Part shown: positions 50,732 to 58,664 of the stretch, piece by piece
Layout: the number at the start of each line of letters is the position of its first letter
How positions within the stretch are numbered: the first letter of the stretch is position 1
Translations under genes and position numbers: made by a program
The notes under the pieces: generated by a model
The model's database searches: none
Told to the model about the DNA's origin: nothing
What the model saw: the letters and a program-made list of their open reading frames with translations, nothing else
Assembly (NCBI GenBank): GCA_017405465.1
Contig: JAFRAJ010000043.1
Span: 1 to 64,000 of the forward strand
Length of the DNA: 64,000 nucleotides
Reading direction: 5' to 3'
Source: Oscillospiraceae bacterium
Lineage (GTDB): Bacteria > Bacillota > Clostridia > Oscillospirales > Ruminococcaceae

Positions 50732-51406
50732 CTAATCTGAAGAAACTGTGGCAGATTTGCGTGCTGCAGCTCTGTAAGTGAAGAACCATCCAAGAAGACA
50801 GAAGGGAATCGCTCCGATGGTATCAAGGATCGAATGCTGCTTGATCATGAATGTTGAAACACAGACCAGCGTTGTAAGTATCGTGGCAGCAGTCTTTGCA
50901 GAATGTCTTGATAAAAGACTGTCGTTCCACAAGGCTATGAGTGAACCGACTGACCATATGACGTGAAGGGAAGGAAATATATAAGTGCTGTTGTCAGCTG
51001 CAAAAATAAGGTTCAGCAGAATGGAAAGGACATCTTCTCCTTCAACAGCAGAAGGTCTTAGAGGCATACATGTAGGGAAGAATATGAATACGAAGTAGAC
51101 CGGAATCGTAGAGATCATGATGTACTTCATAAATCTTCTGAGTGAATCGTAGTCCCTGATAAAGAACCATATCAGAGTGCCAGCTATCTGTGGAAACCAC
51201 ATGCAGTAAGGGATGACGAACCACTTAACTATAGGAATGATCTCATCCAGCCTGCAGTAGAATGGCTGCCACTCTCCGAGCAGACAGATCCTGTTCGTAG
51301 TGAAATAGATCACACAGTGTATCAAAGAATAGATCAGTATCTGCAGTGTAGACGGGAGGCGTTCGCCTCCCGTCACCATATCTTTTATAATTGGACTTCT
51401 TTTCAT
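50732..51406 (-). CDS. PAP2-family phosphatase, membrane bound
   Basis: 224 residues with about six membrane helices. The PAP2 motifs are recognisable as FPSLHV and KQHSILD, with the catalytic His of each. Related enzymes remove phosphate from phosphatidic acid, undecaprenyl diphosphate or inositol phospholipids. The gene has no obvious ribosome binding site at its ATG, so its start or its translation by coupling is uncertain. A perfect hairpin (51351-51374) lies in codons 11-18. Confidence 0.8.
   Translation of the reverse strand: MKRSPIIKDMVTGGERLPSTLQILIYSLIHCVIYFTTNRICLLGEWQPFYCRLDEIIPIVKWFVIPYCMWFPQIAGTLIWFFIRDYDSLRRFMKYIMISTIPVYFVFIFFPTCMPLRPSAVEGEDVLSILLNLIFAADNSTYIFPSLHVIWSVGSLIALWNDSLLSRHSAKTAATILTTLVCVSTFMIKQHSILDTIGAIPFCLLGWFFTYRAAARKSATVSSD
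51351..51374. other. Perfect hairpin in the 5' coding part of the PAP2 gene
   Basis: A 10-bp perfect inverted repeat (51351-51360 with 51365-51374) with a GTTC loop. It lacks a T-tract. It would hinder early elongation or start access if the gene is translated from 51406. Confidence 0.45.
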
Positions 51407-51418
51407 CTGGATGTTATA

Positions 51419-52564
51419 TTACCGCTTTCTGATTGCCTGAGCCGGACAAAGCTCCTGACAGCAGTAGCATCTGATGCATTTACTGTAATCGTATACAGGA
51501 GGGGAATCTTTTCCGTTATCAAAATGAACTGCTCCTCCGGTAACGGGGCAGTGATCGACACAGACGCCGCAATGGATACATCTCGTTTTATCAATTACCG
51601 GCCGTGAAAGTTTTGTTGCGATCCTGGAAAAGGTTCCAAGCAAAGACTTCGGGTTGCCTTTTCGGGCTACATTGAAATCTGCATTTCCGAATCTGTTGAA
51701 AAGATCTTTTCTGGATAGAACTTCCGCATGCCCTTCCTGATCCAGGGTCACAACCTCTATCTCATCCTCACGGCATGTGCCGATGCCACAGACCTGCCCT
51801 TGCTCATTGGTCGGAACGAGAAGAGGATCAAGACTGATTAGCCAGCAGTATACAGTATCCAGAGCAACAGGGTCGTCAGAGAAAAGCATTACATCCATCT
51901 CGACCGGATCACCGGAAGAAGGACCGTTTCCTTCCATCGCGATTATGCCGTCCATGATATGGAGTCTTGGCCTGACAGCTTTATGAATGTCAGTGAGCAT
52001 CCTTGCAAATACTGTGGCGTTCGGAAAAGAAACATGTCCGGCAGCTTTATTGGCGCCGCAAACAAGACCATACACATTTTTGACTGCTCCGGTTATTCTC
52101 TCCAGAGCATGTGTCTTCATCTTGCAGAGGTTTATGATCGCATCTGCTTCAGTCACTTCTTTGGCAAAGCGGAAGTGCTTTGCAGTAGTACCTTCCGGAA
52201 AGGGAAAGTCGACTGCTTCTGACATATCAGCAACAGCTGCACCGTATATTCCATCCTCCAGACCGAGAACCGCAGCAGCAGAACGGCAGCTGCCCATGGC
52301 AGGGGAATCTCCGAATTTGACTTTGCGGTACCCCGCATCATCAAGTAGACGGAGCATGGCTTTGATGACCGAAGGATGAGTAGTTACGGCCTTTGACTGG
52401 TCGCTGGAATGAAGGAAGTTGGGCTTAACCAGAATATTCTCTTTACGGTTAACGAACCTTTCTATTCCTCCGAGAAGTCCTATACCATTCCTGAGCGTGT
52501 TGTAGACCTTCTCTTCCGAATAATCTGTACATCTTAAGATAACGACTTTGGAAACACCATTCAT
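51419..52564 (-). CDS. DUF362 protein with two [4Fe-4S] ferredoxin motifs
   Basis: 381 residues from the ATG at 52564, where the conserved SKVVILRCTDY begins; a GTG at 52597 in the same frame would overlap the upstream gene. The DUF362 core covers about 1-310. The C-terminus has CIHCGVCVDHC and CIRCYCCQELC, two ferredoxin cluster sites. Its chemistry is unknown, and members often sit next to redox genes. It follows an AKR that also carries clusters, so shared electron transfer is plausible. The start is not fixed by a ribosome site. Confidence 0.8.
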   Translation of the reverse strand: MNGVSKVVILRCTDYSEEKVYNTLRNGIGLLGGIERFVNRKENILVKPNFLHSSDQSKAVTTHPSVIKAMLRLLDDAGYRKVKFGDSPAMGSCRSAAAVLGLEDGIYGAAVADMSEAVDFPFPEGTTAKHFRFAKEVTEADAIINLCKMKTHALERITGAVKNVYGLVCGANKAAGHVSFPNATVFARMLTDIHKAVRPRLHIMDGIIAMEGNGPSSGDPVEMDVMLFSDDPVALDTVYCWLISLDPLLVPTNEQGQVCGIGTCREDEIEVVTLDQEGHAEVLSRKDLFNRFGNADFNVARKGNPKSLLGTFSRIATKLSRPVIDKTRCIHCGVCVDHCPVTGGAVHFDNGKDSPPVYDYSKCIRCYCCQELCPAQAIRKR

Positions 52565-52577
52565 TTGTAAGAAGGAG

Positions 52578-53717
52578 TCATCCCTCCATATATTCACGGA
52601 CCTTCTTCAGCAGCTGAGGTATCTCAAGATGCTGCGGGCATGCATTCTGGCATTGACCGCATTCAATGCAGTCGGCAATATTGGCACAGGCCCTGTCATA
52701 ATTGCGCTTCTGAGCTGCTGGGTTCTTGAACTTCTGAGCTTCATTATAGATGCTGAAAGCATTTGGAATCTGGATCTGCATCGGGCATCCTGCTGTGCAA
52801 TATCTGCATCCGGTACATGGAATGTTCTCGGAATGTTCGAGCAGATATCTGATCTCATCTATAGCTGCATCTGCCTCAGGGGACAGAGTGTTGTTATCGT
52901 ATTTGTTTGCGATCTCGATGTTCTCCTTCATCTGGGACATCTCATTCATACCGCTGAGAACGACCATGAATCCGGGCTTGTCAAAGACATATGAGAATGC
53001 CAGTTCCGCGTTGGAAACATTTTCGAGACCGTGCTTCTTCTTGATTTCTTCTACTTCCGGATAATTCGGGAATATCAGACTTCCTCCCTTGCAGGGTTCC
53101 ATAACATTGAGAGGGATTCCTTTGCTTCTGGCATATGCAAGACCCTTATCACCGGCCTGATATTCATGATCAAGATAGTTGTATTGGATCTGTGCAAACT
53201 CCCACTCATCAAAATCGTCTATGATCTCTACGAACTTCTCATAAGTGTCATGGAAAGAGAATCCCAGATGTCTGAGGACGCCCTGGGCTTTAAGATCTTT
53301 TAGATAGTTCTTGATGTCGAAATGTTCACAAAGATACTCCCACTGATCCCCATGGAGTCCATGCATCAGGTAGAAATCTATATGATCCTGCTGCAATCTG
53401 CTAAGCTGCTCATCGAGCATCTTTCTAGGATCGAAATCAGGACTCTTGATTCCCAGTGTAAACAGTTTTGTTGCGACGTTGACCTTGTCATGCAGATGGT
53501 TGTTGGTCAGTATTTTACCGAGGGTCTTCTCAGAGAATCCATTGTGATATGGAAATGCTGAGTCAAAATAGTTTATACCGTTTTCATATGCGTAAAGGAA
53601 CATCTCTTCCACTTTGTCATAATCTACAGCTGACTGATCGTCATTTATGACAGGAAGACGCATGAGACCGAATCCCAATCTGGATATCTTCTCTCCGTGA
53701 AAATCAAAATACTTCAT
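52578..53717 (-). CDS. Aldo/keto reductase with C-terminal [4Fe-4S] ferredoxin domain
   Basis: 379 residues. The TIM-barrel AKR domain has its tetrad Asp52, Tyr57, Lys84 and His119. A C-terminal extension has CTGCRYCTAGC and CIECGQCQNAC, two cluster motifs. It would reduce a carbonyl with NAD(P)H or take electrons from ferredoxin. It is the first gene of the likely operon AKR, DUF362, PAP2, esterase, inactive esterase. The substrate is not evident. Confidence 0.87.
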   Translation of the reverse strand: MKYFDFHGEKISRLGFGLMRLPVINDDQSAVDYDKVEEMFLYAYENGINYFDSAFPYHNGFSEKTLGKILTNNHLHDKVNVATKLFTLGIKSPDFDPRKMLDEQLSRLQQDHIDFYLMHGLHGDQWEYLCEHFDIKNYLKDLKAQGVLRHLGFSFHDTYEKFVEIIDDFDEWEFAQIQYNYLDHEYQAGDKGLAYARSKGIPLNVMEPCKGGSLIFPNYPEVEEIKKKHGLENVSNAELAFSYVFDKPGFMVVLSGMNEMSQMKENIEIANKYDNNTLSPEADAAIDEIRYLLEHSENIPCTGCRYCTAGCPMQIQIPNAFSIYNEAQKFKNPAAQKRNYDRACANIADCIECGQCQNACPQHLEIPQLLKKVREYMEG

Positions 53718-54020: not shown

Positions 54021-54248
54021 ATGTTTGAAACTTTACAGAATCTGATATGCGATCAGCTTGGGGTAGAAGCAGAGCAGGTCACGCTGGAAACATCTTTTCT
54101 TAATGACCTACATTGCGATTCTCTCGAACTCATTGAACTAATCAACACTGTGGAAGAAGAGTTTGAGATCGATGAGATCCCGGAAGAAACACTCGGTGAA
54201 CTCAAGACAGTCGGAGATCTTGTTGAATATCTAGAGAATAATAAATGA
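54021..54248 (+). CDS. acpP: Acyl carrier protein
   Basis: 75 acidic residues, four-helix ACP. Ser34 in the CDSLEL motif is the phosphopantetheine site. A GGAGG ribosome site is present. Standard fatty-acid genes are absent nearby. The gene is followed after 23 bases by an E2-like acyltransferase, so it may serve a dedicated acyl-transfer path rather than bulk lipid synthesis (inference). A second ACP elsewhere in the genome would support this. Confidence 0.92.
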   Translation: MFETLQNLICDQLGVEAEQVTLETSFLNDLHCDSLELIELINTVEEEFEIDEIPEETLGELKTVGDLVEYLENNK

Positions 54249-54271
54249 TTTGAGATTGAAAGGAGTGGATT

Positions 54272-55123
54272 ATGGGAAGACCGGATGGCACTCTGGCAAA
54301 AGTCGGAGATTCTAACTATTTCCTGTTCCCTCACGTTTTAAAGAAACGCTATGATGCGCAGAATATGATCACTGTTGATATACCTGTGGAGCCTATGAAG
54401 CAGTATATCAATGAGAAGAGAAAAGAAGGAATCAGCATCAGCTATCTTGGCTTGGTCATGGCTGCTTATACAAGAGCGGCTGCGAAATATCCTCTGCTCA
54501 ACAGATTTGTTGTCAATGAAAAGATCTATGACAGGAATTATTTCAGCGCTTCGATGGTAGTCCTCAGGCCTGGGGCAGGTACTGATGTATTCTCAAAGGT
54601 CTATTTTGATCCGGAGCACGATACGATTTTTGATGTTCAGAATAAGATCGTAGATTATGTGACAGAGAGCCGCGAGGCTGATTCAGAAACAGGGCTGGAT
54701 AAGCTTGTTAATGCAATCGTTAAAACTAACCTCCTGGCCAAATTCGTTGTTAATCTTATCCTTTGGATGGACAAACACGGCATTTTGCCGAAGGCTATCA
54801 TAGATGCTTTGCCTTTCCATACGAGTTTCCTTATCACCAATCTTGCCAGTATTAGAACGAATCACATCTACCATCATCTTTATGATTTCGGTACTACCAG
54901 TGTCGGAATCGCGATCGGTAACATGAGAGATGTTCCTAAGCAGACAAAGAATGGAATTGAACTTGTAAGAAGCATGCCTCTCGGTGTAGTAATGGATGAG
55001 AGAATATGCTCAGGACATTACTTTGCGAACGTGTTCTCCTATGTGACGAAGATGCTGGCAGATCCCCACAGAATGGAGATCCCATACACGGAAGAAGCTG
55101 CAGCGGAAGCTAAAAGCGAATAA
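54272..55123 (+). CDS. Stand-alone E2-like (CAT-fold) acyltransferase with altered active site
   Basis: 283 residues without a lipoyl domain. The fold resembles the catalytic domain of 2-oxoacid dehydrogenase acyltransferases: TSFLITNLASIR matches the trimer-core block, and MDERICSGHYFA sits at the catalytic DHRxxDG block. Glu243 is at the catalytic His and Ser247 at the Asp, so the E2 chemistry is probably lost or changed. Its tight link to an ACP suggests acyl-ACP binding or transfer. An AAAGGAG site precedes the ATG. A structural, non-catalytic role cannot be excluded. Confidence 0.7.
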   Translation: MGRPDGTLAKVGDSNYFLFPHVLKKRYDAQNMITVDIPVEPMKQYINEKRKEGISISYLGLVMAAYTRAAAKYPLLNRFVVNEKIYDRNYFSASMVVLRPGAGTDVFSKVYFDPEHDTIFDVQNKIVDYVTESREADSETGLDKLVNAIVKTNLLAKFVVNLILWMDKHGILPKAIIDALPFHTSFLITNLASIRTNHIYHHLYDFGTTSVGIAIGNMRDVPKQTKNGIELVRSMPLGVVMDERICSGHYFANVFSYVTKMLADPHRMEIPYTEEAAAEAKSE

Positions 55124-55252: not shown

Positions 55253-57241
55253 ATGGATTGGAAAGTGCTTGGGATAGATCCGACCACAGAGAAGGAAGTA
55301 ATAGAAGCAGCATATAATGAGAAACTTAACTATATCGACCTGGAAAACAGACCTGAAGAATTTGAGATTCTTCATAAGGCTTATCTTGAAGCAATGAACT
55401 TTGCCGATACTCCTACAGCTGCTGAAAAGATCGCGATAGACAAGGAAGACTATGATTTCAGAGCTGAGTTCAGCAGATTATATGACGATTTTTCTCTCAG
55501 AATCTCTCCTGATACCTGGAAAACCCTCCTTGACAGATATGAAGTTTTCCTCGGAAAAGAGAGAGCAGAAGCTGAGCTTATAGACTGTCTGATGGACAGA
55601 CATATACTTCCTCAGATCGTATGGAAATATCTCGACGAAAGATACTCATTTGCCGAAAACAGAGAAGTCCTGCTTGACAGATACCCTAAGAGATTTGTGA
55701 GGGATGTTATTCTCAGAGGAATCCGTTTCAGAGAAATGATTCCATTTGATATGTTCATTCCAGGAAAGAACGGTGCCCAGTGCGAAGAATACCTTAAACA
55801 GTATCTTTCACTGGTAGGTGGAAGCGTTCAGGATCCTTCTGAACCTATAAAGCTGATGGCAGAGTCACCTGAGCAGCACCCGTACGGTAAAGCTCTTGCG
55901 GCAAGGATCTCTGTATTTGCCGGAGAGACCGCAAGAGTTGAAGAACTTGAGAAGATCTGCGCAGATTATCCTGGAAATGCTGAATTGCTTATGGAACTGG
56001 CACCGTCTTATATGGCTGCAGGGTATGCAGATAAATGTATAGAGACTTGCGAAAAAGTCCTTGATCTGGATCCTGCGCAGGCATCTGCTAAGTTGATCAT
56101 GGCACAGGCTCTGGCTCGCCAGGAGGAATATGCAAAGGCTACTGCTCTCATTACTGATGTGATGATGGATCCTTCCACAGATCAGGGGCTGATCAGCAGA
56201 CTCAGTTCAATGAGAGCAGAATGGAATACTCATGTTATAGAAGAACTGTCCAGAATTGAAGCGGAAGGAAAAGCTGACAGCAAGGTCTATATGGATCATG
56301 CATGGAGATGTCTTCAGAATAATATGCTGAGAGAAGCAGCCGATCTCGCAGCTAAGATAGATAAGAACGATACAGAACCCGGAGAGTACAGCGATCTTAT
56401 GAACCAGATCGGATTTGTTACCAGAAACTATGAACTGGCATCCGAGCATGCTGATGTACTTGTCAAACTCGCTGAAGAGGATGTTCCGGGCGGGAAATAT
56501 GCTTCCAGAAAAGCAGAGTTCTATGCAAGAAGAGCAAATACGTTCTTCGTGGCCGGAAACAGAAACGGGGCAGTAAACGCATATATAGATGCGGCTGAAA
56601 AGTGTAAAGATGACCGCAATATCGTCACTATGCTCATCAGGATACTGTTTTCGGAGAAGAGATTCAAAGAAGCAGCATCCTATGCGTCAAGGATGGTCGC
56701 TACAGATCCTGACTCATATATGGGCCATTATTTACTGGCTGAATCATTGTTTGAGGATGGTCAGACTGACAGAGCGTCTGCTGAGATAGATGAAGCGCTG
56801 GAACTTGAAACAGGGGATCTTGATGTTTTCGTCCTTAAGATGAGGATCCTGATCAAGAAAAAAGCGTACGGAGATGCTGAACAGATCCTTGAACTGCTAA
56901 AAAGGTCAGGAGCTGGAGACGCTACAGCAGTGAAGTGGTGTGAAGGACTCATCACTGAACTCAAGTATTATAAGGATGACGAAGCTCTGGATATCTACTA
57001 CGATATAGCTGAGCGGATGGAGAGTGGTGAGTATCTGTCCTGGGGCCCCAAGGTCTACTACAGGATCGCAGTATGCATGGGTGCTCAGATCGATGAGAAT
57101 GACGAGGAGAGCAGAAAAAGTCTCAAGGATATCATCGTCAAAGGACTGAGGCTCGATCCAATGGATCCGGATCTGATGAAATGTCTTAAATGGTTCAACG
57201 GAGATCCTGAGTTCAAATTGGAAGAGTTAAGAGAACTTTAA
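55253..57241 (+). CDS. J-domain-like TPR protein
   Basis: 662 acidic, helical residues. Residues 1-48 (WKVLGIDPT...AAYNEKL...FEILHKAY) look like a DnaJ N-terminal domain, but the HPD motif that activates DnaK is absent. The remaining part is mainly TPR-like helical repeats, clear from about 240 to 620. It may be a protein-binding scaffold. It has an AGGAGA site. An unknown-function gene follows 37 bases later, and PHP and GNAT genes complete a four-gene unit. The family is not characterised to my knowledge. Confidence 0.7.
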   Translation: MDWKVLGIDPTTEKEVIEAAYNEKLNYIDLENRPEEFEILHKAYLEAMNFADTPTAAEKIAIDKEDYDFRAEFSRLYDDFSLRISPDTWKTLLDRYEVFLGKERAEAELIDCLMDRHILPQIVWKYLDERYSFAENREVLLDRYPKRFVRDVILRGIRFREMIPFDMFIPGKNGAQCEEYLKQYLSLVGGSVQDPSEPIKLMAESPEQHPYGKALAARISVFAGETARVEELEKICADYPGNAELLMELAPSYMAAGYADKCIETCEKVLDLDPAQASAKLIMAQALARQEEYAKATALITDVMMDPSTDQGLISRLSSMRAEWNTHVIEELSRIEAEGKADSKVYMDHAWRCLQNNMLREAADLAAKIDKNDTEPGEYSDLMNQIGFVTRNYELASEHADVLVKLAEEDVPGGKYASRKAEFYARRANTFFVAGNRNGAVNAYIDAAEKCKDDRNIVTMLIRILFSEKRFKEAASYASRMVATDPDSYMGHYLLAESLFEDGQTDRASAEIDEALELETGDLDVFVLKMRILIKKKAYGDAEQILELLKRSGAGDATAVKWCEGLITELKYYKDDEALDIYYDIAERMESGEYLSWGPKVYYRIAVCMGAQIDENDEESRKSLKDIIVKGLRLDPMDPDLMKCLKWFNGDPEFKLEELREL

Positions 57242-57278: not shown

Positions 57279-58664
57279 ATGTGGATAGAGGTATTCGTTC
57301 ATAAAGAGAAAAAAGGCATATTGGACATATCTAAACTCGCATCGAAAAGAAAACTGGGTTTTGGTAAAGCTGACAAGGACCATATGCTGATCAAAGGGGA
57401 GACGGGAGAGTACACCAGATTGTATGATCCGTTGTTCCCAGGGATGGCTATGGAATTGAAACAGGACGAAGCGACTGCTGAACTTAGACTGAATTTTCCT
57501 GCAGGTTCTTATGATATTGATCTGTTCTTCCTTCTTACAAAGGATATTTGTGAGGCTGTAGAAAGCAAGTCGTTTTATATTGAGACTGTTGAGCTTTCTG
57601 TAGAAGAAGCGGAAGAACTGACGGAGTATTATTCTGATTGCAGTGTTGAGATATTGAAGATCCTCAGCGGGCAGCTCAGGGAGTCAAAAGTCACCGGACT
57701 GATCATTTATACATCTTTCTATCCCTTTGTGATCGGCAGGAAGGAAGCTGACGGCTTCGACAATGATATCGATAAGTATGCTTTGATGATAAATGAAGCC
57801 CAGAGAAAAGACGCTGTATACAGCAAATGCTGGTCATATATCGGCGGGGACAGGAACTTCTGTGTATATGAAGTAAAGCCGGACGCAAGGAATATCCTTC
57901 CTGTTCACCCGGTTCCTTTTCTGGGACGGAGCATGCCCAGAAGATGTGAGTATTATGTAGATGTTCCTGGAATAGCTTTTTTCAGATACAGTGATTTCAT
58001 GAAGCATTTTAGACCTTCATCTGAGAAGTATGACGGTGCTTCTGTTATCATCACTCCTGACTCCGATGAACTTGAAGACATGAGACATGTCTACGGGGTG
58101 GATGTTGCCAGCGGCCGCGAATCCCAGTTCAGAAGCAGAGGTAAGTTCATAGACTGGAGCGGGTACCATTACGGAAAAATAATACGTAAAGGCCTTCAGA
58201 CTAAAGAGCTCAATTGTTTCAACCATATAGCTGCTTATCTGCATTGGTGTTACTCAAAAGGACTTCTGAACAGAAGTTTTCTGCGGGAATACAGTGATTT
58301 TGCGGACATTCTGAATGACAGGAATATAGATTTAAGGGTCTACCTAAAATACAGAGTCGCAAATTCAGGAGCGATAGGCGCGGAGATGTTTACTGCAGAA
58401 GGCAGGCGATTCACTGAGTATTATTATGTTTTCGGAGACGACGGATATCCTGCGGATGTGGACTCTGCAGCATTTGAGTTTCTGGGAGAAGAAGAGTACG
58501 GTACACCTGAATTTAAGGATGAAGCTTATCTTTTTGTTCCTTATACTGATGAATACAGGCAGATGCTTTTTCGGAGAATGGATGCAGCACTGGCTAAGTA
58601 CCGTAGCCTGAAAGCAAAACAGCGCAGGCGTGATGACAGATCATATGCTATTTTTGACAGATAA
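57279..58664 (+). CDS. Protein of unknown function (partner of the J/TPR protein)
   Basis: 461 residues, family not recognised. The N-terminal 200 residues look mixed alpha/beta with many aromatic residues. A block near residues 285-330 with WSGYHY and HIAAYLHWCYSKGLL resembles DUF7832-like domains of the polymorphic-toxin/immunity type. The C-terminus is basic. No membrane segment or signal peptide. It lies between the J/TPR gene and the PHP gene in the same direction with short spacers. An immunity- or sensor-type role is only a guess. Confidence 0.45.
   Translation: MWIEVFVHKEKKGILDISKLASKRKLGFGKADKDHMLIKGETGEYTRLYDPLFPGMAMELKQDEATAELRLNFPAGSYDIDLFFLLTKDICEAVESKSFYIETVELSVEEAEELTEYYSDCSVEILKILSGQLRESKVTGLIIYTSFYPFVIGRKEADGFDNDIDKYALMINEAQRKDAVYSKCWSYIGGDRNFCVYEVKPDARNILPVHPVPFLGRSMPRRCEYYVDVPGIAFFRYSDFMKHFRPSSEKYDGASVIITPDSDELEDMRHVYGVDVASGRESQFRSRGKFIDWSGYHYGKIIRKGLQTKELNCFNHIAAYLHWCYSKGLLNRSFLREYSDFADILNDRNIDLRVYLKYRVANSGAIGAEMFTAEGRRFTEYYYVFGDDGYPADVDSAAFEFLGEEEYGTPEFKDEAYLFVPYTDEYRQMLFRRMDAALAKYRSLKAKQRRRDDRSYAIFDR

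What the first reader, a model, noticed from the sequence alone, without database searches (positions are those of the whole stretch)
54021..55123. ACP linked to an E2-like acyltransferase with replaced catalytic residues
A dedicated ACP lies 23 bases before a CAT-fold protein that has no lipoyl domain and has Glu243 and Ser247 instead of the catalytic His and Asp. No dehydrogenase complex genes are near. The pairing suggests a new acyl-ACP dependent activity or a carrier-binding scaffold.
Basis: partly seen in the sequence, partly recalled or inferred. Interest (0 to 1): 0.55.

Follow-up and report, generated by a model that had tools for sequence, protein, structure and literature searches.

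The report
Carrier protein paired with remodelled acyltransferase
A small acyl-carrier protein sits directly in front of a common but undescribed relative of the E2 acyltransferases whose active site has been rebuilt in a consistent way, in a group of gut bacteria in which the usual fatty-acid-making gene tested could not be found; the neighbours of the wider family point to membrane-lipid building, but no function has been tested.

Summary
In detail: an ACP (54021-54248) ends 23 nt before a 283-aa E2/CAT-fold protein ("E2L", 54272-55123) without a lipoyl domain, with Glu243 and Ser247 where E2 has His and Asp. It is not an isolated oddity. E2L belongs to a family found in 106 of 391 class genomes. 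In 106 family members not selected for the motif, position 243 is always acidic (103 E, 3 D), Asp242, Arg244, Ser193, His201 and His202 are invariant, and a 33-35-residue helical insertion is universal. Ser247 is a subclade trait (Asp in 92 of 106); His249 is not conserved. Invariant alternative residues argue for an active enzyme, not a dead E2. The ACP pairing recurs only within the window's genus (5 of 9 genomes). The wider family is coupled to a long-chain acyl ligase (25 of 194 groups), GDPD (7), and PAP2-like proteins (4, two as fusions, with PlsC-like genes). No FabF or PlsX was found in 9 genus genomes, but AcpS was in all. Best reading: an acyl-thioester-dependent acyltransferase of membrane-lipid metabolism for which the ACP is a dedicated donor. 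Reaction, acceptor and ACP binding are inferred.

The parts
54021..54248 (+). Acyl carrier protein, 75 aa, phosphopantetheine serine 34 (CDSLE)
   Evidence: PF00550 E 8e-14, TIGR00517 over its cut-off; orthologues 61-70% identical in 5 further genus genomes
54272..55123 (+). E2L: E2/CAT-fold acyltransferase-like protein, 283 aa, no lipoyl domain, motif DERICSG (242-248), invariant His201-His202, helical insertion about residues 139-172
54249..54271 (+). 23-nt gap between ACP stop and E2L start, holding a ribosome-binding-like stretch
   Evidence: 13-23 nt in the other genus genomes
52578..53717 (-). Aldo/keto reductase with 4Fe-4S domain, divergent from the ACP, conserved in genus synteny
51419..52597 (-). 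DUF362 with ferredoxin domain, conserved in genus synteny
50732..51406 (-). PAP2_3 membrane protein, homologous (31.5% over 168 aa) to the domain fused to E2L in other genomes
   Evidence: fold search weakly to sphingomyelin-synthase-related protein and LpxE
55253..57241 (+). TPR protein, conserved downstream neighbour in the genus; link to the pair unknown

Best explanation
E2L is an active CAT-fold acyltransferase family of anaerobic bacteria, descended from or sister to E2 catalytic cores, that moves acyl chains from a phosphopantetheine thioester (acyl-ACP or acyl-CoA) to a membrane-lipid acceptor. In the window's genus the small ACP is its dedicated donor. Proposed steps: AcpS modifies Ser34 of the ACP (enzyme present, step inferred); an AMP-forming long-chain acyl ligase activates scavenged fatty acids (enzyme present, substrate inferred); the acyl-pantetheine arm enters the channel that in E2 takes lipoyl or CoA arms (inferred from fold); Asp242, Thr189 and the invariant pair His201-His202 form a rebuilt active site in which Glu243 no longer plays the histidine's part (inferred from conservation and alignment); the acyl group passes to a lipid hydroxyl at the membrane, helped by the hydrophobic helical insertion (inferred). 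Shown here: genes, fold, conservation, recurrence and neighbourhoods. Not shown: any catalysis, the acceptor, and ACP-E2L contact.
For: In 106 rows not selected by a His-His pattern: N77, S193, H201, H202, G207, D242, R244 in 106 of 106; residue 243 E in 103 and D in 3. A 33-35-residue insertion in 171 of 171 rows. Model and E2/CAT fold. Long-chain acyl ligase directly downstream, often overlapping, in 25 of 194 distinct groups, in genomes of 13 family codes (my tally); 23 of 120 same-strand +1 genes against 3 of 1426 other neighbours (not corrected for kinship; at least 6 changes on the tree). PAP2-like gene adjacent or fused in 4 of 194 groups with a PlsC-like gene in the same row; GDPD within 250 nt on the same strand in 7 of 194. 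Window PAP2_3 is homologous to the fused domain. Ligase orthologue in 9 of 9 genus genomes, 74% identical to an E2L-coupled one, within 3 kb of another ACP in 5 of 9. FabF 0 of 9, PlsX 0 of 9, AcpS 9 of 9: ACPs there are unlikely to serve ordinary fatty-acid elongation. Precedent: in E. faecalis acpB lies with plsX and takes acyl groups from exogenous fatty acids, and L. johnsonii keeps only AcpS and an AcpB next to plsX (PMC6509188, passages). In E. coli E2o, His375 can be Trp with 59% activity, while Asp374, kept here as Asp242, matters (PMC5986005, passages).
Against: The ligase, PAP2 and PlsC links belong to E2L clades other than the window's; the window's own 30-row clade has no conserved neighbours outside the genus beyond local ones. 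The window PAP2_3 is divergently transcribed, three genes away. The ACP is absent beside 190 of 194 groups. FabF and PlsX absence rests on incomplete genomes (54-94% complete) and two families only; PlsY, FabH, FabD and FakAB were not searched. The PlsC-like neighbours lack the Asp of the usual motif (recalled), so their activity is doubtful. His201/His202 were not shown to lie in the active site; no coordinates could be measured. Nothing biochemical was tested.
Confidence: 0.45

Rival explanations
1. Acyl-CoA:ACP transacylase. E2L does thiol-to-thiol transfer as E2 does, with the ACP arm in place of the lipoyl arm: the ligase makes acyl-CoA and E2L loads the ACP, standing in for PlsX in a genus without it, so that a PlsC-type enzyme has its acyl-ACP.
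For: Chemistry closest to E2; ligase coupling; PlsX 0 of 9 and AcpS 9 of 9; acpB-plsX precedent (PMC6509188); Asp242 and Thr189 kept.
Against: Fusions to membrane domains in L219, L220 and L217 suggest a membrane acceptor; ACP is not beside the ligase-coupled E2Ls.
Confidence: 0.22
2. Carrier- or acyl-binding protein without catalysis, a scaffold or regulator built on a dead E2 core, as the E3-binding protein of mammalian pyruvate dehydrogenase is a catalytically silent E2 relative (recalled).
For: The E2 histidine is absent in all 171 rows; human E3BP is among the structural matches (6h60, Z 20.4).
Against: H201, H202, S193, N77, D242 and R244 are invariant or nearly so and residue 243 is always acidic, which is more than a scaffold needs; the family adjoins acyl ligases.
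Confidence: 0.15
3. The two genes share an operon but not a reaction: the ACP serves another enzyme, and E2L works with CoA or another donor as in the rest of the family.
For: ACP adjacent in only 4 of 194 groups, all one genus; the ACP changes faster than E2L.
Against: Adjacency with a 13-23 nt gap kept in 5 of 9 genus genomes at saturated synonymous distance from the window.
Confidence: 0.18

Closest known systems
E2 catalytic core (dihydrolipoyl acyltransferase, PF00198)
   Same: Fold, alignment over 206 columns, Asp-x-Arg of the catalytic loop, Thr/Ser of the TxTN loop
   Different: No lipoyl or E3-binding domain, His to Glu/Asp in all 171 rows, invariant His-His where E2 has Thr-Pro, 33-35-residue helical insertion, no dehydrogenase partners nearby
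Chloramphenicol acetyltransferase and the HHxxxDG superfamily
   Same: Fold (CAT type I Z 17.1)
   Different: HHxxxDG motif absent at its place
AcpB-PlsX pair of Lactobacillales
   Same: Auxiliary ACP gene beside an acyl-transfer gene; L. johnsonii keeps AcpS and AcpB while lacking fatty acid synthesis (PMC6509188, passages)
   Different: Acyltransferase is E2L, and PlsX was found in 0 of 9 genus genomes
AasS-type acyl-ACP synthetases (PMC11271967, abstract)
   Same: An AMP-forming long-chain acyl ligase lies near an ACP in the genus
   Different: Ligase falls among long-chain acyl-CoA ligases; ACP specificity untested

Membership tests
E2 component of 2-oxoacid dehydrogenase complexes | E2/CAT-fold catalytic core | tested here: met
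E2 component of 2-oxoacid dehydrogenase complexes | Catalytic His and Asp of DHRxxDG | tested here: not met
   Glu243 and Ser247; no His at 243 in 171 rows
E2 component of 2-oxoacid dehydrogenase complexes | Lipoyl and E3-binding domains on the same chain | tested here: not met
   model begins directly with the core
E2 component of 2-oxoacid dehydrogenase complexes | E1 and E3 partners encoded in the genome | not tested
   Only the neighbourhood was read; genome-wide only canonical E2 was sought, none over cut-off in 9 genus genomes
Acyl carrier protein | PP-binding domain with DSL serine | tested here: met
Acyl carrier protein | 4'-phosphopantetheine on the serine | not testable with these tools
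   AcpS gene present in 9 of 9 genus genomes
Chloramphenicol acetyltransferase / HHxxxDG acyltransferases | HHxxxDG at the catalytic loop | tested here: not met
   DERICSG in its place
Wax ester synthase / DGAT | Membership by sequence profile | tested here: inconclusive
   No such Pfam family listed at E 0.01 for this protein; remote kinship not excluded

The most novel reading that the evidence does not exclude
E2L is a new enzyme class: an E2 core whose catalytic histidine was replaced by a conserved acid while a His-His pair across the channel took over, acylating membrane lipids from acyl-ACP, or loading ACP from acyl-CoA, in gut anaerobes that lack ordinary fatty-acid elongation and PlsX. 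The ACP-E2L pair would be the missing link by which they put scavenged fatty acids into lipids.
Probability: 0.25. Interest if true: 0.75.

Novelty: new variant of a known kind. Interest (0 to 1): 0.5.

Why it matters
Annotation pipelines are likely to call such genes 'E2 subunit' (expectation, not from a call) although they lack its catalytic His and its lipoyl domain, and they occur in about a quarter of the sampled genomes of the class (106 of 391). If the family is an acyl-thioester lipid acyltransferase, it would be an unrecognised step of membrane building in gut anaerobes and would make testable how a genus with no detected FabF or PlsX uses its ACPs. It would also give a natural case of a CAT-fold active site rebuilt around different residues.

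Tried and rejected
Rejected: (1) a decayed E2: the altered residues are invariant and dN/dS is low. (2) His249 as catalytic: His in 37 of 171 rows. (3) Ser247 as part of the ACP link: Ser or Thr also occurs in E2Ls without ACP. (4) A general ACP-E2L pairing: only the genus. (5) My early idea that the E2o Thr323 equivalent is lost: the SucB alignment shows it is Thr189, T or S in 170 of 171 rows. (6) Fructose-bisphosphate aldolase, ClC and other +1 neighbours: local to a few lineages, not followed.

Limits: one search chose its 80 loci by a pattern that contains His-His, so invariance of H201/H202 is quoted from the 106 rows outside that set, which come from the whole-genome hits. A2 holds 85 rows: window, L003 and 83 of the 89 dereplicated sequences; L060, L082, L110, L111, L114 and L121 were left out by hand. 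The tree has 171 of 206 sequences (one per 85% cluster, envelope over 230 aa), by FastTree, with a long-branch warning. Contexts were fetched for 100 of the places listed. Fold searching cannot exclude other families. The PAP2 model (pLDDT 80, 7 rows) gave no match at E 0.001; best were SMSr (E 0.05, prob 1.00) and LpxE (E 0.44, prob 0.96). Literature: no description of this family turned up (open-access library only).

Full report
What is there. The two ORFs are as described: ACP 54021-54248 and E2L 54272-55123, both on +, 23 nt apart. The ACP is a standard PP-binding protein with the DSL serine at residue 34. E2L matches PF00198 over its C-terminal part only, with no lipoyl or E3-binding domain. 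The whole chain models with high confidence (pLDDT 94.1, pTM 0.91) and its best structural matches are E2 cores (Z about 21; CAT type I 17.1). Profile alignment to 22 canonical E2 domains and to E. coli SucB puts Thr189 on Thr323, Asp242 on Asp374, Glu243 on His375, Arg244 on Arg376 and Ser247 on Asp379 of E2o, and His201-His202 on Thr-Pro of the STPIIN stretch. Recalled from the Azotobacter E2p work, not from a call: residues of that stretch line the lipoyl side of the channel.

What the replaced residues mean. They are not alike. In 106 family rows found without any His-His pattern, residue 243 is Glu in 103 and Asp in 3; Asp242, Arg244, Asn77, Ser193, His201, His202 and Gly207 are invariant. 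Position 247 is Asp in 92 of the 106, so Ser is probably a later change of the window's part of the tree (the tree is not rooted). A 33-35-residue insertion, helical in the model, is in 171 of 171 rows. This is the pattern of a working enzyme with another active site. Loss of the His is less damning than it looks: in E. coli E2o the His375Trp variant kept 59% of activity, whereas Asp374Ala kept 2% (PMC5986005, passages), and that Asp is kept here.

How common it is. E2L was found in 16 of 100 genomes of the window's family and 106 of 391 of its class, also in Spirochaetales records. Canonical E2 is another matter: 26 of 101 genomes of the phylum have one at E 1e-20, the genus none over the cut-off in 9 of 9.

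The pairing. The close E2L orthologue (84-100%) occurs in 5 of 9 genus genomes, each with the ACP 13-23 nt upstream; a sixth genome has the ACP at a contig edge. The other three genus genomes have a different E2L (41-43%), each directly behind a GDPD gene. Among 194 distinct E2L groups, 4 have an adjacent ACP and all 4 are of this genus. Both genes are under purifying selection. So the pair is real and old enough for saturated synonymous sites between the window and its relatives, but local.

The wider neighbourhood. In 25 of 194 groups a long-chain acyl ligase (PF00501) follows E2L directly, often overlapping; 23 of 120 same-strand +1 genes are this ligase against 3 of 1426 other neighbours (kinship not removed, at least 6 changes on the tree). 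In 4 groups a PAP2-like membrane protein lies directly upstream, in two of them fused to E2L, with a PlsC-like gene before it; a further locus has PlsC-PAP2 upstream with two genes between. GDPD lies within 250 nt on the same strand in 7 groups. One E2L carries another membrane domain without Pfam match (L217). The window has a PAP2_3 gene of the same family as the fused one (31.5% over 168 aa), divergent and three genes away, conserved in the genus loci that reach that far. These links belong mostly to other E2L clades than the window's, so they bear on the window by homology.

The genus. FabF was found in 0 of 9 genomes (10 of 14 controls ring) and PlsX in 0 of 9 (8 of 14 controls), while AcpS is in 9 of 9 and every genome has at least one ACP match. 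An orthologue of the E2L-coupled ligase is in 9 of 9; its copy in the window's genome is 74% identical to an E2L-coupled one and in 5 of 9 genomes an ACP lies within 3 kb of it. The genomes are 54-94% complete, and other fatty-acid genes were not searched. L. johnsonii, which lacks fatty acid synthesis but keeps AcpS and an ACP beside plsX (PMC6509188, passages), is the nearest parallel.

Reading. I hold an acyl-thioester-dependent acyltransferase of membrane-lipid metabolism, with this ACP as dedicated donor, most likely (0.45). A transacylase that loads the ACP from acyl-CoA is the closest rival (0.22); an unrelated operon partner (0.18) and a scaffold (0.15) follow. Shown: genes, fold, conservation, recurrence, neighbours, presence and absence counts. 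Inferred: catalysis, the place of His201-His202 in the site, the donor, the acceptor.

Novelty. The protein is not a member of the E2 components (two defining features tested and not met) though it shares their fold. I found no paper describing the family in the searches listed under Tried and rejected. I rate it a new variant of a known kind.

Noticed in passing
G000 and 8 genus genomes: No FabF and no PlsX found, yet AcpS and one to three ACPs are present; how this genus makes or imports membrane acyl chains is open.
   Followed up: partly
L219:4019-5530 and L220:3392-4903: Natural fusion of a PAP2-like membrane domain with E2L, preceded by a PlsC-like gene.
   Followed up: partly
L219:5536-6264, L302:6575-7324, L286:1338-2099: PlsC-like proteins read NH-x4-G where the usual motif (recalled) is NH-x4-D.
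   Followed up: no
L217:2345-3766: E2L with a different N-terminal membrane domain of about 185 aa that matches no Pfam family.
   Followed up: no
L221-L226: Genomes of 0.8-1.2 Mb keep E2L right after a RarA-like ATPase gene, several with a basic, coiled-coil-like tail.
   Followed up: no
L045:2106-8043: In the window's genome an acyl ligase, iron alcohol dehydrogenase, patatin-like protein, ACP and F420-ligase-like protein lie together; F420-ligase-like genes also lie near E2L in L236 and L068.
   Followed up: partly
window 55253-57241 and 57279-58664: TPR protein and DUF7832 protein follow the pair; the TPR gene is conserved downstream in the genus, function unknown.
   Followed up: no
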